64,000 nucleotides of DNA. It comes from Ahniella affigens. GTDB lineage: Bacteria > Pseudomonadota > Gammaproteobacteria > Xanthomonadales > Ahniellaceae. A model generated the notes under the pieces. It saw only the letters and a list, made by a program, of their open reading frames with translations, searched no databases and was not told the DNA's origin. The translations under genes were made by a program, and so were the position numbers. The stretch covers positions 1,860,001 to 1,924,000 of the forward strand of contig NZ_CP027860.1 in the NCBI RefSeq assembly GCF_003015185.1, read 5' to 3'. Within the stretch, counting starts at the first letter, position 1; each line of letters opens with the position of its first letter. Shown here piece by piece: positions 18,057 through 43,257 of the stretch.

Positions 18057-18462
18057 CTGGACGCTGCGGCCATCGCGCCTGCAGCCGCTGTTCAGCGTTG
18101 GCGCAGTCACCCTTGGGCTCGCCGCACTCTTAATCTGGACCGATCTGCGGCTCTGGCAGCTATTGTCCGTATTGATCATCGTGCTCGGCCTGGAATGGTG
18201 GCGATTTCGCCGCTTTGGCCGCACCGAAGCCGGGCGCTATCTGATTCGGCCCGACGGGTTCTGGCAGTTGCCCGGGTCGGACGCACTCTGGCAGCTCCGG
18301 TCGGTCTCCTGGTTTCCGGGGCTCTGTCACTGTCAACTTCAAGAAGCCACGCGCCCAAGTGAAGCGCGGCAGTTGCTGTTCTGGCGCGACCAAGTGGACA
18401 CGCATAGCTGGCGGCGTTTGCGGGCTCGTCTTCGAACATATCGTCCGGGAGCGGCTGAATAA
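18034..18462 (+). CDS. YgfX-like inner membrane protein
   Basis: 142 residues. Two adjacent transmembrane helices (about 20-55) and a basic C-terminal cytoplasmic domain fit the YgfX (CptA) family, whose E. coli member is coded next to sdhE (ygfY) as here and has been described as a membrane-bound toxin affecting cytoskeletal proteins. Similarity beyond topology and context is weak by eye. The stop codon overlaps the first bases of a dispersed repeat. Confidence 0.72.
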   Translation: MISASPLDWTLRPSRLQPLFSVGAVTLGLAALLIWTDLRLWQLLSVLIIVLGLEWWRFRRFGRTEAGRYLIRPDGFWQLPGSDALWQLRSVSWFPGLCHCQLQEATRPSEARQLLFWRDQVDTHSWRRLRARLRTYRPGAAE

Positions 18463-18490
18463 GTCCATCCTGGACTTTCAGACCCGCATT
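18456..18490 (+). repeat. Dispersed hairpin repeat, copy 1 (short)
   Basis: A 35-base segment identical at 33 positions to 42704-42738. It begins TGAATAAGTCC and contains the 6-bp stem AGTCCA-TCC-TGGACT. It overlaps the ygfX stop codon. The second module found in the other two copies (GAGTCCGGCACA) is missing; instead a run of seven T follows at about 18499. Confidence 0.75.
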
Positions 18491-18828
18491 GCCTCAGATT
18501 TTTTTCAGAGACTGCTCAAAACTGCGGGCGACGTTCAGGCGGTTGCGCGCTGCGGCCTGCGGGCGATATGGCGGTTTCGGACATCCCGTCGAACTGTGAT
18601 GCAGTTCGCATAACAGGCTGTCAACTTCGCCACACTTTGGAGTGGAAAGGCGTCAACGTCGGCACGTCAACAGGGACATCGATGCAACCGACCCAGATCA
18701 GTAGGGCTTGTGTTTTCATAGCGCCCCAACCGACCGCAGCGCCTCGGCATAGCGGCTCTGAATCAGCGCGGACAAACGGACGCGTCGCCTGATTGCAAAC
18801 CGGTCTGATGGCGATCAGGAGTGGTGTC
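18491..18828. other. Intergenic region upstream of the gingipain-like gene
   Basis: About 340 bases with no credible gene in either strand. It holds a T-rich stretch near 18499-18507 that may help end the sdh operon transcript, and presumably the promoter of the large downstream gene; I could not pick a convincing -35/-10 pair. Confidence 0.5.
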
Positions 18829-21800
18829 ATGCGTAGGTTCGTAAGCTGCTTGGTCTGCGTGCTGGCAATGGCTGCGACGCCGGTCTGGTCTGCCGTTGAG
18901 ACTGCGGTGTCCCGCGATCCTGAATTGGGCACCAGAACCGCGCTGCCCAACGCCAAGTTCAAAAAGCGTTTGCATCGCTACGACGAGCCGATGCGAGCGC
19001 AGCAGTTTTTCAACTGGCAGCGGAGCAAAGATCAATCATTCGACACTGATCGCGCCATCGCCGAAGCGCGTCGGCTTGCCGAGCAAATGCCGTGGTTTTC
19101 CAGTGCCCGCAACGAAGTCGTGGCGGGTGTGCCGAATCTTGATCAGTCGGGAACAGAGCCAAACAGCGCACTCGACAGCTGGACGGCACTCGGCCCCGGC
19201 AATGTCGGCGGACGGACCCGTACGCTGGTGTTCCACCCGAACTTTGCCTCGAACAATACGATGTTCGTCGGCGGCGTCGCGGGCGGCATCTGGCGCACTA
19301 CCGATGGTGGCAGCACATGGAGTCCGTTGGGCGATTTCAATCCGAACATCGCGGTGACGGCCATGTTGATTGACCGGACCAATGCGAACCACCTTTGGGT
19401 TGGTACGGGCGAAGGCTTCTTCAATGTCGATGGTGTTCGTGGTGCTGGCATCTTCGAGTCCAACGACGGCGGAACAACGTGGACGCAAATCCAGACAACC
19501 GCGCCGTCGGCCAGCAATACCAATTTCCGCTATGTGATCGACATGGCGCAAAGCCCGAATGCGGCAGCGACGTTTTATGTGACGACGCTCACCGGGTTAT
19601 GGCGTACCACCGACAGCGGCGCGACCTGGACACGCTACATCGATCCGACTGCGGGAACCGCCGCCAACGGTTGCCACGACATCATCGTGCGGCCGGACAT
19701 CACGCCGAACGACACGGTTGTGGTCAGCTGTGGCAATTTCGCGCCGACTGGCACGGCGACTGGCATTTGGCAAAGCACGAACGCGAATGCCGTCACGCCG
19801 ACTTGGAGCAAGCGACTGGGCCCCGCCGGAACAACCGTCCTGAATCGGATGGGACGCACGAGTCTCGCTGTAGCGCCCAGCAATTCCGCCACGATGTATG
19901 CGCTGATCGCGTGCAGTGCCCAGGCAACATCGGGCACGACGGCTTGTGGTGATTTGGGCGGCACCGCCAACGACAATCATTTTGATGACGGGCTGCGTGC
20001 GATCTACCGCTCGACCGATGGTGGCGCGACCTGGGCCGCGCAATACACGAACGGCTTTACCGAAGCGACGACCGCCAATCGCGAACTATTGCTGACGAAC
20101 CCGCTGATCGGCCGCTGTGGCCTCTGCACGTCCATCTGTGGTGTTGGCGCGACCAGCAGCTATGGTGGTCAGGGCTGGTACGACAACGTGATCGCGGTCG
20201 ATCCGGCCAATGCCAGTCGGGTCTGGGTTGGCGGGATCGATCTGTGGCGGTCCGATGACGCTGGTGTCAACTGGGGAATTGCGTCGTACTGGGGCCAGCA
20301 ATACATGCCCGGAGTGCCAGTCACCAACTACGCCCATGCGGATCAACACGGCATCTGGTTTCCGCCCAATTACGACGGCAGCACGGTCAAGACGCTGTTC
20401 GTGACCAACGACGGCGGCGTACACCGAACGCTGGATGCGACAGTTGCGGTTGGAACGTCGTCCACCAATAGCCAGGCGACGAATTCCATCTGCGGCCAGG
20501 CCAATCGGCCTGCCATTGCGTGGGGCAATCTCAATAACGGCTATCAGGTAACCCAGTTCTATCATGGCACCGTGTTCCCGAACGGCCAGACCTATTTCGG
20601 TGGCGCTCAGGACAACGGCACGAACCTGCGCGCGGAATCGACGATGAGCGCGAATCAGTGGAACGAGGTCAACGGCGGTGACGGCGGCTATGTGGCGGTG
20701 GACCCGACCAACACGAACATTCTGTATTCCGAAACGACTGGCATCAGCATCGACAAGTCCACTGACGGGGGCGTCAATTGGGCAAGCGCGATCAGCGGCA
20801 TCACCGATGTGGGTGGCCTGTTCATCAATCCGTTCCTGCTCGATCCAAACCTGAATACGCGCCTGTTCACCTCCGGTCGAAGCATTTGGCGTTCCGCGAA
20901 TTCCGCCGGGACTTGGACGCAGGCGTCGAGCGCGCTGGCCACGCGGACCTGTGGTGCGAGTGCCTTCAACGACAATTACTCGGCCTACGCAGTGGCGCCG
21001 GGGGACAGCAATCTGATGGTGATGGGCTCCGATCTGGGGCGGCTCTGCCGGATCACCAACGCCACCTCGTCAACCAATGCGACGACGCCGGTGTGCACGA
21101 CGCCGCTCGGCACCAATTGCGCAACGATCTCCTCGATTGCGTTCGACGCGACTCAGGCAACGTCCACGGCGCAGAACAGCCGCGTGGTGTTCGCGACCGT
21201 TTCGGATTTTGGTTTCAGCCATGTCCTGAAATCCACCGACGGCGGCCAAACCTGGACTGCGATCGACAATCAGGCCGGCACCACCGCGCGACTGCCCGAT
21301 GTCCCGGCACACTCGCTGGTCACGGATGCGGCGTATGGCGTCGGGCAGCGACTGTATGTTGGCACTGACCTCGGCGTGTTTGTCAGTATCGATGCGGGTC
21401 TGAACTGGATGCGCGAAAACGCAGGCTTCGCGAACACGCCAGTGGAATGGTTGCAGATGCATGCGCGGACGATTGGCACTGGGCTCGCTGCGGCAAAGGC
21501 GCCTGCCACGGGCCAACTGTTTGCCTTTACGCATGGTCGGAGTTTGTTCAAGACGAGTTTGCGCGCCGCTGGTGGTTTCTGTGCCAGTCCGGCGGCCGCG
21601 ATTCCGGACAACAACGTGGGGGGCGCGACCTCCAGCATCACTCTGAGTAACATCAGCGCGACGCAGACCGGTTGGATCGACCTCGATCTGCAGATGACGG
21701 TGACGCACGCGAATGTGGGCGATCTCAGCGCCACATTGACGCGCACCAGTGGTGCGGGCGCACCGGTGTCGGTGACCTTGTTCTCCCGTCCCGGTGTGCC

Positions 21801-24597
21801 GAGCACGAGCTTCTGCACCGGCAGCGGCGACAATATTGCGGCGACGTTCGATGATGACGCGGACTTTACTGCCGAAACGCGTTGTATCGACGCCAACACG
21901 CCAACATTGGCGGGGCAGTTCCGTGCCGAGGGCGCTCTGTCATCCGTCTTGGTTGCCGGAACGGCGACCTATCAACTCACCATCAATGATCAGGCCGCGG
22001 GCACGGCGGGCACGCTGAACAGTTGGTGTTTGGTTCCGACTGCAAATACCGACGCCACCGTGCCCGTAACCTTGAGTGCGCTCACTTCCGAACGCGACCA
22101 ACAGGGCGTGCTCACGGTGCGCGTGACGACCGATGTGCAGGTGTCGGTAGCAGCATTCGAACTCAGCAGTACACGGCGAGAACAAGAGGTATTTGAGCGC
22201 GCAGCGGCAGGAGCCGATCGCACGATGCCGGATACCCTGCAGTTGCGGGCGCCCTACAGCGGCAATCAGTTCTATCTGCGCATCCTGAACATCGATGGTT
22301 CGGCTGATACGTTGGGGCCGTTTCAGGTTGGTCAGCACTATGGCCGAGCGGCATCCAATGGTGAGGCCGTGCCCATCGACTGGCCTGCCGTTCGCCAGGA
22401 ACAGAACCAGATCGGTCGCAGCCCGGCCAGTGTCAGTGCCGGCACGGGTGTGGCGCGGCCAGCCGTCAACCTGCTCGTGGCAGACGATGGGATTCAGAAT
22501 GTGAGTTACGAAGCATTGATGACAGCTGGCGCAACTGGCTTTGCCGACGTGCCATTGGCCGATCTGGCACTGAGTCTGGAAGGGCGCCAGGTGGCCGTGA
22601 ACGTGAGATCTGCAGACACGATCTTCAATGCTGGCGATGAGATTGAGTTCGTTGGGCACAGTCTGCACCGTCCGAGTCAGACTGGTGCGGCCTACGAGAG
22701 TCTGTACAGTCGCCGGCTTCCGTATCGGTTGAGCGTCGACCCGGACCATGCATTGCGCGTTCGGCCGGCTCGAACGAACGATACCCCGACCGATGGTCCG
22801 GCTCAGGTTCGCCAGCAGGTGACGGTGGAGGACAACCAGCTGTATGTCTACAGTGCGCCGCTGAACGACCCGTGGGCATGGTCCAGAACGCTGGCGATGA
22901 ACGGATCACCAGCCACGACGCAGCACCAGTTTTCGCTCGCGTCCGTGGACGTCGCGGCGCCGGCGTCGATCGAAGTGAGTCTGTACGGTGGCAACGACTT
23001 CCCGCTGGGGGGCCTCGATCATCACGTCGAGGTCCTGTTGAACGGACAGTTGTTGGGCGAAACGCAGTTTGATGGCCTGCAGGCGCAGACCATGCGCTTC
23101 AGCCTGCCGGCAGGTAGTCTGCAGGCCAACAATACGTTGAGCGTGCGCGTGCCTGGGGATGTGGGGCAGGTCTACGACATGGTCTATCTGGAGGATATCC
23201 AGGTTGACTATTACCGCACGTTGCAAGCAACCGATGGTCAGCTGTCATTCGTGTCGGAGACCGGCGCCGGGCAGCCCGTCGCGCTGCCGCAAGGCTATCT
23301 GATGAGCGATGCATTTGAGGATCCGGTGCCCTTGTGCGTCCCGGAGGCCTGTCAGACCCTGACAATCACCGGCCTGCAGCCAGCCACTGCCAGAATTTAT
23401 CAAGGTGCTGGCGAGGACTGGTTCGAGATCGCGGCGGTCGAGCAGTCGGGCGCGCTCAGGTTTACCGCGCCGGTTTCGGCGGGGCACCGTTTTGAAGTGG
23501 CTGACGCCAGCGGATTGAAGCATCCAGAGGTTGCGGCCATAGCGGATACCACGATGTTGAGCGCGGGGCCAGCCGAATATCTGGTGATCGCGCACCCACA
23601 GTTTCGGTCGGCATTGAGTGGCCTGCTTGCCGCCCGACAATCGGACGGACTCAGCACCAAGCTGGTCGATGTGGACGCGGTGTATCAGCAATACGCAGGC
23701 GGCCGTGTCGATCCGCAGGCGATCGATGACTACGTGGCGTTTGCGTATGCGAACCTGGGCACGCGCTATGTGCTCTTGGTTGGGGGCGATACTTACGATT
23801 ATTTCGATGACTTGCATTTGGGTGCGATCTCGCACATGCCCACGATCTATCGGGCCGGCGATGCGTTTGTCCGATTCGCGGCCAGTGACAATGCGTTCGC
23901 CGACATCGATGGGGACTTGGTGCCGGAACTTGCGATCGGTCGCTTGCCGGTTCGAACAGTGGCTGAACTCAACACGCAGATCAACAAAATCTTGGCGTAC
24001 CAATCGAACCATGCCAGCACGCTCGTCTTTGGCGCTGACCTGAGCGCCGATGGTGTGGACTTTGACACCCTGGTGGACGCGCATCAGCTTGCCTATGTCG
24101 GCCCCGGCTCCAAGCTGAGCATCTACCCTGACGTGAGTGGCATGCCTGCTGCTAAGGCCTTGCTGGTGGATACGATCAATGCTGGCGCACGTTATGTCGA
24201 GTACTTTGGTCACAGCTCGCCCGATCGCTGGAGCTATTCGCCGATGTTGACCGCCAGCGATCTCAATAGCGGCGCCCTGACTAACATCAATCAGCCGATC
24301 GTGGTCAATCAACTTGGGTGTTGGAACACGTTTTTTGTGTCGCCACAGGCAAACGGTATGGCTCACGCGTGGCTGAACAATACCGCGGGCGCAGCGGCGG
24401 TGATTGGCGCGACGGCGCTCATTGAAATTGGTAGCGGCCACGAGCTCGGGCTCCGGATCAGCGAGCGATTGCAACCCGGGGCACGAATCGGCGATGTGCT
24501 GAAATCAGCCAAGCAGGACCTCCAGGCGGACGGCATCAATGCCGTGGATGTGCTGGTCGTGTCGACGCTTCTTGGGGATCCGGCCATGCCGTATTGA
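18829..24597 (+). CDS. Giant secreted protein: BNR/sortilin-like propeller, P-domain, gingipain-like (C25) peptidase
   Basis: 1922 residues. Start at MRRFVSCLVCVLAMAA: AGGAG lies 8 bases upstream and a Sec signal peptide follows. Residues about 100-900 carry repeated Asp-box-like motifs (WRTTDGGSTW, FESNDGGTTW, YRSTDGGATW, KSTDGGQTW) typical of BNR/VPS10 propellers. About 915-1066 resembles a proprotein-convertase P-domain (DNNVGGATSS...NSWCLVP). A long linker of beta-sandwich character follows. From about 1581 the protein resembles the gingipain C25 catalytic domain: EYLVIAHPQF, YVLLVGGDTYDYF, His1795 in YFGHSSPDRW and Cys1831 in VNQLGCWNTFF, spaced 36 apart much like the gingipain His/Cys dyad. 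No C-terminal sorting domain was recognised. Likely exported endopeptidase; substrate and activation unknown. Confidence 0.85.
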   Translation: MRRFVSCLVCVLAMAATPVWSAVETAVSRDPELGTRTALPNAKFKKRLHRYDEPMRAQQFFNWQRSKDQSFDTDRAIAEARRLAEQMPWFSSARNEVVAGVPNLDQSGTEPNSALDSWTALGPGNVGGRTRTLVFHPNFASNNTMFVGGVAGGIWRTTDGGSTWSPLGDFNPNIAVTAMLIDRTNANHLWVGTGEGFFNVDGVRGAGIFESNDGGTTWTQIQTTAPSASNTNFRYVIDMAQSPNAAATFYVTTLTGLWRTTDSGATWTRYIDPTAGTAANGCHDIIVRPDITPNDTVVVSCGNFAPTGTATGIWQSTNANAVTPTWSKRLGPAGTTVLNRMGRTSLAVAPSNSATMYALIACSAQATSGTTACGDLGGTANDNHFDDGLRAIYRSTDGGATWAAQYTNGFTEATTANRELLLTNPLIGRCGLCTSICGVGATSSYGGQGWYDNVIAVDPANASRVWVGGIDLWRSDDAGVNWGIASYWGQQYMPGVPVTNYAHADQHGIWFPPNYDGSTVKTLFVTNDGGVHRTLDATVAVGTSSTNSQATNSICGQANRPAIAWGNLNNGYQVTQFYHGTVFPNGQTYFGGAQDNGTNLRAESTMSANQWNEVNGGDGGYVAVDPTNTNILYSETTGISIDKSTDGGVNWASAISGITDVGGLFINPFLLDPNLNTRLFTSGRSIWRSANSAGTWTQASSALATRTCGASAFNDNYSAYAVAPGDSNLMVMGSDLGRLCRITNATSSTNATTPVCTTPLGTNCATISSIAFDATQATSTAQNSRVVFATVSDFGFSHVLKSTDGGQTWTAIDNQAGTTARLPDVPAHSLVTDAAYGVGQRLYVGTDLGVFVSIDAGLNWMRENAGFANTPVEWLQMHARTIGTGLAAAKAPATGQLFAFTHGRSLFKTSLRAAGGFCASPAAAIPDNNVGGATSSITLSNISATQTGWIDLDLQMTVTHANVGDLSATLTRTSGAGAPVSVTLFSRPGVPSTSFCTGSGDNIAATFDDDADFTAETRCIDANTPTLAGQFRAEGALSSVLVAGTATYQLTINDQAAGTAGTLNSWCLVPTANTDATVPVTLSALTSERDQQGVLTVRVTTDVQVSVAAFELSSTRREQEVFERAAAGADRTMPDTLQLRAPYSGNQFYLRILNIDGSADTLGPFQVGQHYGRAASNGEAVPIDWPAVRQEQNQIGRSPASVSAGTGVARPAVNLLVADDGIQNVSYEALMTAGATGFADVPLADLALSLEGRQVAVNVRSADTIFNAGDEIEFVGHSLHRPSQTGAAYESLYSRRLPYRLSVDPDHALRVRPARTNDTPTDGPAQVRQQVTVEDNQLYVYSAPLNDPWAWSRTLAMNGSPATTQHQFSLASVDVAAPASIEVSLYGGNDFPLGGLDHHVEVLLNGQLLGETQFDGLQAQTMRFSLPAGSLQANNTLSVRVPGDVGQVYDMVYLEDIQVDYYRTLQATDGQLSFVSETGAGQPVALPQGYLMSDAFEDPVPLCVPEACQTLTITGLQPATARIYQGAGEDWFEIAAVEQSGALRFTAPVSAGHRFEVADASGLKHPEVAAIADTTMLSAGPAEYLVIAHPQFRSALSGLLAARQSDGLSTKLVDVDAVYQQYAGGRVDPQAIDDYVAFAYANLGTRYVLLVGGDTYDYFDDLHLGAISHMPTIYRAGDAFVRFAASDNAFADIDGDLVPELAIGRLPVRTVAELNTQINKILAYQSNHASTLVFGADLSADGVDFDTLVDAHQLAYVGPGSKLSIYPDVSGMPAAKALLVDTINAGARYVEYFGHSSPDRWSYSPMLTASDLNSGALTNINQPIVVNQLGCWNTFFVSPQANGMAHAWLNNTAGAAAVIGATALIEIGSGHELGLRISERLQPGARIGDVLKSAKQDLQADGINAVDVLVVSTLLGDPAMPY

Positions 24598-24757
24598 TCC
24601 CGGCTGCGGTTGGTCGCGGCAACGTCGGCTTAATCGGTCTTGCCCGAGTCTTGGCTGGCGATCGGCTGACGCTTCCCCGGAAGCGCTTGTTTTATTTGGC
24701 GATTCCAGCCCGCTTGGTTACACTTCCGGTCTTTACTTTTCGGAATTGGCCCGAACC

Positions 24758-25886
24758 ATGATTGAAATCAATCCAATCGTCAGCCGCATTGCGGACCTGA
24801 CCGAGCGCACGGCGTCGCTCAGGGGGTATCTTTGACTTCGACAGCAAGCGCGAGCGGCTGGAGGAAGTAAGTCGAGAGTTGGAGCTCCCGACAGTCTGGG
24901 ACAATCCCCAGCGGGCCCAGGACTTGGGGCGTGAACGCGCCATGCTCGAGAAAATCGTCAACGAGCTGCAGGGCGTTGGCGCCGGCCTCGTCGAAGCGAA
25001 AGAGCTGCTCGACATGGCCGTGGCCGAAGGCGATGAAGGCACGATTGGTGCCGTTCAGGCCGATGTCGAAGGCTTTGCGGCACGCATCGAAAAGCTTGAG
25101 TTCCAGCGTATGTTCTCGGGCAAGATGGATTCGCACAGCTGCTTCGTCGAATTGCAGGCGGGTGCTGGTGGTACCGAGGCTCAGGATTGGACGGAAATGC
25201 TGACCCGCATGTATCTGCGGTTTGCCGAAGCGCGGGGCTGGAAGTCGGAAGTCGTCGAAGCCTCCGATGGCGAAGTCGCGGGCATCAAGGGTGCGACAAT
25301 CCGGATCGAAGGCGACTACGCGTTCGGCTGGTTGAAGACCGAAACCGGCGTGCATCGTCTGGTGCGCAAGTCGCCGTTCGATTCCGATAATCGCCGACAT
25401 ACGTCGTTCTCGTCGGTGTTCGTGTCGCCCGAAGTCGATGACGATATCGACATCGAAATCAACCCGGCCGACCTGAAGACCGATGTGTATCGCTCGTCCG
25501 GTGCCGGTGGTCAGCACGTCAATAAGACCGAATCCGCCGTGCGTATCACGCATGTGCCGAGCGGTGTCGTGGTGGCGTGCCAAACCGAGCGGTCGCAGCA
25601 TGCGAACCGCGATCGCGCGATGAAGATGCTGAAAGCAAAGCTGTACGAAATCGAGATCCAGAAGCGCAACGCCGAGAAGAATGCGATCGAGGCGTCGAAG
25701 TCCGATATCGGCTGGGGCAGTCAGATCCGTTCGTATGTGCTCGATCAGAGTCGCATCAAAGATCTGCGCACTGGCGTGGAGCGCACCGACACCCAGAAAG
25801 TGTTGGACGGCGATATCGATGAATTCATCGAAGCCAGTTTGAAGGCCGGGTTGGAAGCGGGCGCGAAACGCGCTGATGCGAACTGA
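24758..25886 (+). CDS. prfB: Peptide chain release factor 2, with programmed +1 frameshift
   Basis: The coding sequence is in two frames: 24758-24832 (25 codons, [20 protein letters not shown]... to LRGYL), an in-frame TGA at 24833-24835, then the +1 frame from GAC at 24834 to the stop at 25886. The product is about 375 residues. SPF-type anticodon loop ([14 protein letters not shown]) and GGQ motif ([13 protein letters not shown]) identify RF2, which releases at UGA and UAA. It precedes lysS by 47 bases as in E. coli. The break is regulation, not decay. Confidence 0.97.
24821..24836 (+). promoter_or_regulatory. prfB programmed +1 frameshift site
   Basis: AGG GGG TAT CTT TGA C: a Shine-Dalgarno-like AGGGGG stimulator three bases before the CTT slippery codon, and a poorly terminating UGA-C. 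It is identical to the well-characterised E. coli element. Low RF2 favours slippage from CUU to UUU, giving autoregulation. Confidence 0.97.
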
Positions 25887-42373: not shown

Positions 42374-42703
42374 TGGCCGCGGGCGGTTGCAACTCGCAGT
42401 GGAGGCCGGCCAACGATCAGTCAGACGGGACACAATGCAGCGGCTCGATCGCACCGCAGCAGCATTGGAGTCCGGCAAAGTGCAAGCGTCGCTATTGCTG
42501 CGTCGTGTTGCGTCGGCCAATGGCACGGTCACTGGAACGAACATCGACGGCGTGTCCGACCTGCCACTGACGATCGCCAATGCGGTTCGGGTGACAGCGA
42601 CAGCGTTCTCGAATCAGACGACGCCTGGCGGCACGAACAATGTGTTCAGCAATGCAAGCGGCAACTTCATGTTGTCGCTGCCGCCGGGCCGCTAGGGAGG
42701 GTG
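42374..42703. other. Non-coding or decayed segment after lysR
   Basis: A short plus-strand open stretch ends at 42695; its last 60 codons (from ASANGTVTGTNIDGV) have the Thr/Asn/Ala composition of a secreted protein but no start or ribosome-binding site. It may be the upstream part of the decayed gene that follows. Confidence 0.4.
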
Positions 42704-42799
42704 TGAATCAGTCCATCCTGGACTTTCAGACCCGCACTGAGTCCGGCACATGTCCGGACTCAGTGCTCCAGAATCAACCACCTGCGTGTTTGATTCTGG
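42704..42799 (+). repeat. Dispersed hairpin repeat, copy 2: three consecutive hairpins
   Basis: The first 35 bases match copy 1 (33 of 35). Hairpin A: AGTCCA-TCC-TGGACT (42710-42724). Hairpin B: 13-bp perfect stem GCACTGAGTCCGG / CCGGACTCAGTGC with a 7-base loop (42734-42766). Hairpin C: CCAGAATCAA / TTGATTCTGG with a 12-base loop (42768-42799). It directly precedes the decayed secreted-protein gene. Confidence 0.8.
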
Positions 42800-42810
42800 G
42801 CAGGCCATCC

Positions 42811-43257
42811 ATGGCCAGCATCACCTCTGAACTTGTTCTGAGGCTCCCTAAGGCATTTGGTGGCGCAGCCTGCAACCCAAATGACTGCGCCAACGTCGTC
42901 GGTGTGACCTTCGCGACCAGTACCGGAACCGAGACGGTCTGCGGCACCGGCATCGCGCTCGCCGCGGTACAGGCTATTGCTGTGAATGGACTCATTGCGA
43001 GCCGTGCGCAGACCAACGCGACTGGTGACGATACGCTCGGTGGCCTGTAGCTCGGCGTCTGCAAACTCCGCGAGACGAATACCGCGGACTTGATCAACCT
43101 TGGTCTGCAAGATAGCTTGTTCGGTGGCCCTACCTGCATCGGCTCATGCAATGTTCTGAGCGGCACCGCGATTACGGTGAGCGTGGCGATCACCACGGCC
43201 AATGTCGACTTCGCCGTGGCGCAACAGCCACTCGTCTTCTGCGACGGATTCGAGTAG
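42811..43257 (+). pseudogene. Decayed secreted-protein gene with in-frame TAG
   Basis: One frame runs from ATG 42811 (MASITSELVLRLPKAFGG) through TAG at 43048-43050 to a stop at 43255-43257. The sequence on both sides of the TAG has the same Cys/Thr/Val-rich secreted character (GTGIALAAVQAIAVNG before; GGPTCIGSCNVLSGTAIT after) and it ends in PLVFCDGFE, like other secreted proteins in the window. There is no signal peptide, so the 5' part is lost or displaced. A sequencing error at the TAG is possible but would not restore the start. Confidence 0.6.

What the first reader, a model, noticed from the sequence alone, without database searches (positions are those of the whole stretch)
18829..24597. 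A 1922-residue exported protein joining a BNR/sortilin-like propeller, a P-domain and a gingipain-like (C25) catalytic domain
Seen directly: signal peptide, repeated Asp-box-like TDGGxTW motifs, P-domain-like segment, and a C-terminal His1795 (YFGHSSPDRW) / Cys1831 (QLGCWN) dyad with the surrounding C25 pattern. Known: gingipains are mostly described from Bacteroidetes, where they carry a type IX sorting domain. Here there is no such domain, the context is proteobacterial, and the catalytic part lies at the far C-terminus after about 1580 residues. The propeller may act as recognition or inhibitory module.
Basis: partly seen in the sequence, partly recalled or inferred. Interest (0 to 1): 0.7.

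Follow-up and report, generated by a model that had tools for sequence, protein, structure and literature searches.

The report
Secreted propeller-tethered gingipain-fold protease
A bacterium apparently related to Xanthomonas encodes a large, probably exported protein that ends in a protease fold best known from gum-disease bacteria, here joined to a propeller-shaped front part and found without the secretion tag it usually goes with.

Summary
The 1922-residue protein at 18829-24597 has five Asp boxes, a tandem beta-propeller, a sub-threshold P-domain-like stretch and a complete C25 domain at its very C-terminus. The model of residues 1067-1922 (pLDDT 89.7) matches RgpB at Z 39.6 and PorU at Z 19.8; His1795 and Cys1831 are invariant in 43 of 43 relatives. 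The closest solved relative over the last ~720 residues is PorU, but the Arg reported for PorU as sortase is Ala here, and no type IX tail was found in the genome. Best reading: a Sec-exported cysteine endopeptidase with a PorU-like pro-region and a binding propeller. It is not exotic: this genome has four such genes, and 59 of 250 genomes of the order carry C25. The surprise lies beside it: 46 sites in this genome read F-x-x-G-F-E-stop (control 0), and a GFE-like motif recurs in the disordered linker before the C25 core, in 29 of 44 rows from tail-rich genomes. This hints at a C-terminal signal. But 30 of 77 tail-rich genomes lack C25, and a kinship-corrected test had no power, so the link is only a lead.

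The parts
18829..24597 (+). Gene for the 1922-residue propeller-C25 protein
   Evidence: Open frame and AGGAG at 18817-18821; Pfam C25 and Sortilin-Vps10 over cut-off
18817..18821 (+). Shine-Dalgarno-like AGGAG, 7 nt before the ATG
   Evidence: Sequence read directly
18829..18891 (+). Signal peptide, residues 1-21
   Evidence: Sequence pattern read by eye; no signal-peptide program was available
19174..21570 (+). Tandem beta-propeller region, residues 116-914, with five Asp boxes
   Evidence: Asp boxes 5 vs 0.028 expected; model m7f8b6ed17264 (mean pLDDT 70.1) aligns with the GH74 enzyme 6p2k_A, Z 28.0, rmsd 5.6, 624 residues
21571..22026 (+). P-domain-like stretch, residues 915-1066 (tentative)
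   Evidence: Pfam P_proprotein 12.7 bits, under the cut-off of 21; the ortholog L009 scores 17.1 and matches this stretch with 130.9 bits
22057..22332 (+). Beta-sandwich, residues 1077-1168 (model residues 11-102)
   Evidence: Structural rows at Z 7-8 only, which may be just a common arrangement
22438..23295 (+). PorU-like N-terminal beta region, residues 1204-1489; candidate pro-region
   Evidence: PorU 6za2_A aligns with model residues 138-856 and with profile positions 109-828 (E 9.7e-51)
23296..23319 (+). Disordered linker with GFE-like motif YLMSDAFE, residues 1490-1497
   Evidence: Model residues 422-431 have pLDDT under 50; a GFE-like motif lies at this place in 29 of 44 C25 rows from tail-rich genomes
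23578..24591 (+). Peptidase C25 catalytic domain, residues 1584-1921
   Evidence: PF01364 193.4 bits; RgpB 4ief_B Z 39.6, rmsd 2.2, 309 residues
24211..24213 (+). Catalytic His1795
   Evidence: Invariant in 43 of 43 rows; aligned with RgpB and Kgp
24319..24321 (+). Catalytic Cys1831
   Evidence: Invariant in 43 of 43 rows; aligned with RgpB and Kgp
24670..24685 (+). Terminator-like hairpin after the gene
   Evidence: One site found, 0.6 expected by shuffling, so weak

Best explanation
The gene encodes a Sec-exported cysteine endopeptidase of family C25. Shown: signal-peptide-like start, tandem propeller, PorU-like beta region, and a C25 fold with its His/Cys dyad at the extreme C-terminus. Inferred: the protein crosses the outer membrane by a type II system (two GspD secretins are present in the genome); the propeller and the P-domain-like part bind substrate or a surface and bring the protease to it; the PorU-like beta region acts as a pro-region; and cleavage in the disordered linker at residues ~1488-1497 activates or frees the protease. 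It is more likely a hydrolase than a sortase, because the Arg reported as conserved in PorU and missing in gingipains is Ala1863 here.
For: C25 over cut-off and full length; RgpB Z 39.6, Kgp Z 35.9, PorU Z 19.8 on a model of pLDDT 89.7; PorU profile match E 9.7e-51; dyad 43 of 43. Sortase Arg: PorU Arg722 lies 32 residues after the catalytic Cys and is absent from gingipains (PMC4560394, passages); the same place is Ala1863 here and Arg in 1 of 43 rows (3 more have Arg one column later). Por_Secre_tail: 0 in the genome, while 1 of 14 control genomes rang. GspD: two loci over cut-off. The four C25 genes of the genome share the C-terminal module but differ in front end: propeller; P-domain plus GEVED (two genes); Gly-rich. 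That fits a protease aimed by exchangeable binding parts. Linker pLDDT under 50.
Against: No activity, localisation or processing data. Secretion by T2SS is a guess from the presence of secretins. The pro-region role rests on homology with PorU only. Substrate specificity is unknown: no S1-pocket residue was assigned with confidence. The propeller model is middling (pLDDT 70.1), and many unrelated single propellers match it at nearly the same Z. The SprA search was uninformative, so absence of type IX secretion rests on the missing tails.
Confidence: 0.62

Rival explanations
1. Self-processing module: the C25 part is a C-terminal maturation domain that cuts itself off at the linker, leaving an exported propeller protein whose new C-terminus resembles the GFE tail of other exported proteins of this genome.
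For: Same C-terminal module behind different front ends. GFE-like motif ([GSAT]F[ED]) in the linker window in 29 of 44 C25 rows from tail-rich genomes, 3 of 11 from tail-poor genomes of the order, 1 of 15 outside the order; background in the rest of these proteins 0.13, 0.20 and 0.09 per 65 residues. The strict form GF[ED]: 21 of 44, 1 of 11 and 1 of 15; among named records 17 of 28 with titles I count to the order and 0 of 50 others. Two of the other three propeller proteins listed for this genome end in DSFE or SGFE. The motif lies in the segment of pLDDT under 50. Caspase-fold domains that might process surface proteins are mentioned in PMC3482391 (one passage).
Against: 15 of 44 rows from tail-rich genomes lack even the loose motif (17 of 44 under the rule), and the loose motif also occurs in 13 of 50 named records that I count outside the order. 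The test on independent pairs has 4-7 pairs and no power. No cleavage data. The linker copy in this protein is the variant AFE, not GFE.
Confidence: 0.18
2. Sortase: the C25 proteins process GFE-tailed exported proteins, as PorU processes T9SS cargo.
For: PorU is the nearest solved relative over ~720 residues. C25 and tails co-occur: 47 of 77 genomes with 5 or more tail sites have C25, against 12 of 173 of the rest (Fisher p 1.8e-19, not corrected for kinship).
Against: 30 of 77 tail-rich genomes have no C25 match. The PorU sortase Arg is Ala1863 here and Arg in 1 of 43 rows. Cutting next to the last residues of a protein would remove almost nothing.
Confidence: 0.07
3. Glycan-active propeller with an accessory protease: the tandem propeller is a GH74-like enzyme or sugar binder and the C25 part only matures it.
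For: Of the 50 rows listed, the one that spans both propellers is the GH74 enzyme 6p2k_A (624 residues, Z 28.0, rmsd 5.6); the best sequence match in the PDB is 6p2m_A (E 5.8e-08), which I take from its neighbouring code to be of the same study.
Against: GH74 catalytic acids were not checked; single-propeller chains of unrelated function score the same Z; in this genome the other three C25 proteins have other front ends.
Confidence: 0.08

Closest known systems
PorU, type IX secretion C-terminal peptidase/sortase (C25)
   Same: Fold and order of domains over the last ~720 residues; Cys/His dyad
   Different: Sortase Arg replaced by Ala1863; no counterpart of the PorU chain after its residue ~787; no T9SS tail found in the genome; a propeller front end is fused on
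Gingipains RgpB and Kgp (C25)
   Same: Catalytic fold: Z 39.6 and 35.9; dyad
   Different: About 20% identity; nothing follows the catalytic part, so no Ig-like or sorting domain; specificity unknown
PorZ, two seven-bladed propellers, needed for surface exposure of PorU (PMC5121618, passages)
   Same: A double propeller together with a PorU-type peptidase, here in one chain
   Different: Homology between the propellers was not tested; PorZ carries a T9SS signal; the other three C25 proteins of this genome have other front ends
Sortilin/Vps10 and GH74 tandem propellers
   Same: Asp-box propellers, Sortilin-Vps10 over cut-off; GH74 structural match over both propellers
   Different: Front half of a secreted-type peptidase rather than a receptor or a glycosidase alone; GH74 active site not checked

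Membership tests
Peptidase family C25 | PF01364 over its gathering score, full length | tested here: met
   193.4 bits vs 23; positions 1-373 of 374
Peptidase family C25 | Cys/His catalytic dyad | tested here: met
   His1795 and Cys1831, 43 of 43 rows; aligned with RgpB
Peptidase family C25 | Caspase-like gingipain fold | tested here: met
   Z 39.6 to 4ief_B, rmsd 2.2, 309 residues
Gingipain proper (Arg- or Lys-specific) | Cleavage after Arg or Lys | not testable with these tools
   Needs an assay
PorU sortase | NCBIfam equivalog-domain score | tested here: not met
   NF033707 146.6 bits vs cut-off 420; NF052324 118.4 vs 450
PorU sortase | Conserved Arg 32 residues after the catalytic Cys | tested here: not met
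   Ala1863; Arg in 1 of 43 rows; feature taken from PMC4560394 (passages)
PorU / type IX secretion | T9SS cargo tails (Por_Secre_tail) in the same genome | tested here: not met
   PF18962: 0 matches; 1 of 14 control genomes rang, none over the cut-off
Type IX secretion | SprA translocon | tested here: inconclusive
   TIGR04189: 0 matches, but no control genome rang either
Sortilin-Vps10 propeller | PF15902 over its gathering score | tested here: met
   47.9 bits vs 33
Proprotein convertase P-domain | PF01483 over its gathering score | tested here: not met
   12.7 bits vs 21; paralogs L005 and L006 pass at 28.3 and 29.8
GH74 | Catalytic acids | not tested
   Only the fold was compared

The most novel reading that the evidence does not exclude
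Many genomes of this order carry an apparently undescribed C-terminal signal, [ILVM]-F-x-[DNSH]-G-F-E at the very end of dozens of exported-looking proteins, and their C25 proteins often carry the same motif in the flexible linker before the protease. The protease would cut itself off there, so that the exported front end acquires the same C-terminus as the tail-bearing proteins: a self-maturing branch of an unknown sorting or anchoring route.
Probability: 0.13. Interest if true: 0.85.

Novelty: new variant of a known kind. Interest (0 to 1): 0.5.

Why it matters
It puts a PorU-type peptidase, known from the type IX secretion route, into a genome in which no type IX tail was found, fused to a tandem propeller. 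This lets one ask what such peptidases do without that route. If the GFE-like linker and the GFE tails belong together, they would define a new C-terminal signal in a large group of bacteria, testable by mass spectrometry of secreted proteins.

Tried and rejected
Sortase for GFE tails: rejected as the main reading, because 30 of 77 tail-rich genomes have no C25 match and the PorU Arg is missing. Phylogenetic link between linker motif and tails: of 69 rows, 27 are tail-rich with motif, 17 tail-rich without, 3 tail-poor with, 22 tail-poor without; the independent-pairs test had 4 pairs on starred branches and 7 on all, median p 1, so no support beyond kinship. The motif needs at least 14 changes on the tree of 129 rows, 41 of them with motif, three of these titled Acidobacteria or Thermoanaerobaculia; 49 of 126 inner branches are open. 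The rule for the motif was chosen after seeing the sequences and loosened, so its counts lean in favour. The rows come from 70 loci that I chose among those fetched; the second C25 group of the order (15 loci below) and a few partial loci were left out of that count.

A second C25 group of the order (792-1038 aa) has, read by eye, an Arg 34 residues after the Cys in 15 of 15 loci listed. I looked for shared neighbours at 4 of these loci and saw nothing I could interpret (those neighbours were not scanned for families). None of the four C25 matches of the window's genome is of this group. SprA search: no match, but no control rang, so it says nothing. Named C-terminal signal models: ten 25-residue GFE tails gave no NCBIfam match except one sub-threshold repeat (14.6 bits, cut-off 41) in the residues before one tail; two full proteins ending in DSFE and SGFE matched no C-terminal signal model. 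Literature: searches for gingipain with peptidase C25 and Gammaproteobacteria, C25/gingipain with Xanthomonadales or Lysobacter, CTERM signals, C25 with PorU and Proteobacteria, 'GFE motif', DGFE, peptidase C25 with Acidobacteria and C25 with Chloroflexi/Lysobacterales showed no description of this architecture or tail in their listings; only the first rows were listed, and the library holds open-licence papers only. A first genome-contig scan with the whole protein found nothing. PorZ did not appear among the 50 rows listed for the propeller model; that is no evidence against it.

Full report
What is there. The frame at 18829-24597 encodes 1922 residues without a stop. It starts with a signal-peptide-like segment behind an AGGAG. 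Its scanned neighbours on the same strand look like housekeeping genes by Pfam (ten proteins): before it a succinate dehydrogenase/fumarate reductase flavoprotein type (14836), an Mpo1-like protein, an Fe-S subunit type (17006) and a CptA-like protein (18034); after it a peptide chain release factor, a class II tRNA synthetase (D, K or N type), an esterase, a ParA-type and a ParB-type protein; the tenth had no match. So it looks like a single gene set among core genes, with a weak terminator-like hairpin at 24670.

Front half. Five Asp boxes stand against 0.028 expected, and Sortilin-Vps10 is over its cut-off. The AlphaFold model of residues 22-1080 is middling (pLDDT 70.1, pTM 0.70, 16 sequences). 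Of the 50 rows listed, the one that covers both propellers is the GH74 enzyme 6p2k_A (624 residues, Z 28.0, rmsd 5.6); single-propeller chains of unrelated function score as high. So the fold is most likely a tandem propeller, and its function is open. The P-domain reading is under the Pfam cut-off here (12.7 of 21 bits), although two paralogs pass it.

Back half. The model of residues 1067-1922 is good (pLDDT 89.7, pTM 0.91, 43 sequences). It aligns with RgpB (Z 39.6, rmsd 2.2, 309 residues), Kgp (Z 35.9) and PorU (Z 19.8, rmsd 6.8, 564 residues, model residues 138-856). The profile of the family finds PorU best, at 9.7e-51 over positions 109-828, then RgpB at 3.1e-33. The catalytic His and Cys are invariant in 43 of 43 rows. 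The protein ends one residue after the C25 domain, so there is no room for an Ig-like or sorting domain.

Hydrolase or sortase. A paper on P. gingivalis (PMC4560394, passages) reports an Arg in PorU, 32 residues after the catalytic Cys and missing in gingipains, as a sortase-like feature. Here that residue is Ala1863; among 43 rows one has Arg there and three have Arg at the next column. NCBIfam's PorU models score 146.6 and 118.4 bits against cut-offs of 420 and 450. No T9SS tail was found in the genome, with one control genome ringing below the cut-off. So membership in C25 is met, and membership as a PorU sortase is not.

How common it is. The genome has four C25 genes with a shared C-terminal module of about 850 residues and three kinds of front end: propeller, P-domain plus GEVED (twice), and Gly-rich. 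C25 was found in 59 of 250 genomes of the order and in 20 of 369 genomes of the class sample. A scan of named records gave 78 loci kept out of 194 relatives, with titles from Lysobacterales, Acidobacteriota, Chloroflexota, Deltaproteobacteria and others. By equal contig lengths (for example 14743, 28715 and 29958 bases) I infer that the window's order is Lysobacterales; the genome itself is unnamed, and some record titles (Alcanivoracaceae, Oceanospirillales) disagree with the order code. The full propeller-C25 architecture was seen in at least 3 of 101 genomes, where at most four candidates per genome were scored: the window's own, G005 (51% identity over residues 45-1920) and G008 (split at contig ends). 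On the tree these three group together with support 92. The C-terminal place of C25 is the rule: 63 of 70 rows and 72 of 78 (the two sets overlap) have 124-137 residues after the His. C25 genes were already known to be abundant among exported peptidases in sediments (PMC6752024, passages).

The tail. Two other propeller proteins of the genome end in DSFE and SGFE. The pattern F-x-x-G-F-E-stop has 47 sites in the genome and none with the pattern reversed; one site (L117) ends in TGG, leaving 46. Of 30 loci read, 29 show such a frame end. Of the 40 of 47 sites fetched with about 6 kb, 36 lie at the end of a frame of at least 100 residues, four at frames of 52-68, and 29 have a crude signal-peptide-like start by my own rule, which was not calibrated and had no control set. 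In the order, 77 of 250 genomes have 5 or more sites. Among the 364 genomes of the class sample that lie outside the order the highest count is 7. Ten tails matched no NCBIfam C-terminal signal model.

The linker. In the C25 proteins a GFE-like motif recurs about 290-336 residues before the catalytic His, in the stretch the model of this protein leaves disordered. In its loose form it is present in 29 of 44 rows from tail-rich genomes, 3 of 11 from tail-poor genomes of the order and 1 of 15 outside it; elsewhere in the same proteins it occurs 0.09-0.20 times per 65 residues (one row, L050, was dropped for lack of a recognised His, identical cores were merged, and the second C25 group was not included). 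In its strict form GF[ED] the counts are 21 of 44, 1 of 11 and 1 of 15; among the named records 17 of 28 with titles I count to the order and 0 of 50 others, while the loose form is in 20 of 28 and 13 of 50. Forms such as IFSDGFE, IFNNGFE and LFADGFD match the tails closely. In this protein it is YLMSDAFE at residues 1490-1497. Against a functional link: 30 of 77 tail-rich genomes lack a C25 match, 12 of 59 C25 genomes are tail-poor, and the test on independent pairs has no power.

Most likely function. I read it as an exported cysteine endopeptidase that is aimed by its front end and held latent by its PorU-like region (0.62). Export by type II secretion is inferred from two GspD secretins over cut-off. 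Self-processing at the linker is the strongest rival (0.18) and the source of the most novel reading. What is shown is the anatomy and the predicted fold; activity, export and processing are inferred.

Noticed in passing
G000 genome-wide, e.g. L096 (end of the 1284-aa frame), L249-L288: 46 sites read F-x-x-G-F-E-stop (47 pattern sites, one of them TGG; control 0); 77 of 250 genomes of the order have 5 or more, against a maximum of 7 in 364 genomes of the class sample outside it. Ten of these tails matched no NCBIfam C-terminal signal model.
   Followed up: partly
18462-18486 and 42710-42734: Palindromic repeat AGTCCATCCTGGACTTTCAGACCCG, 149 copies in the genome at up to 2 mismatches (control 0), some in runs spaced 127 bases apart; one copy sits at the end of the CptA-like gene just before the C25 gene.
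   Followed up: partly
42640-43257: A frame ending in VFCDGFE has an in-frame stop at 43048-43050 and a copy of the repeat at 42710-42734 upstream, so this tail-bearing gene looks interrupted or truncated.
   Followed up: no
L038, L066-L077, L080, L091: A second C25 group of the order (792-1038 aa) has an extra C-terminal part of about 85-251 residues and, read by eye, an Arg 34 residues after the Cys in 15 of 15 loci; in family f12 the five genomes with a strong C25 match are also the only ones with 5 or more tail sites.
   Followed up: partly
L186, L188, L193 (C-termini); L100: Two Acidobacteriota C25 proteins end in FEDGDTSAWSTP or FESGDTSAWSTP and a third in ESGGFTAWSAVR, after the C25 domain; the 2571-aa C25 protein in L100 ends in IFKDGFESGISSE.
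   Followed up: no
24879-25886: The release-factor frame starts at position 13 of the PCRF profile, which would fit a start in another frame and the programmed frameshift known for prfB (the latter from memory).
   Followed up: no
L095 (2006-aa frame): A propeller paralog carries a long array of similar ~80-residue repeats around the string TQPTTPNQTCVV before its DSFE end.
   Followed up: no
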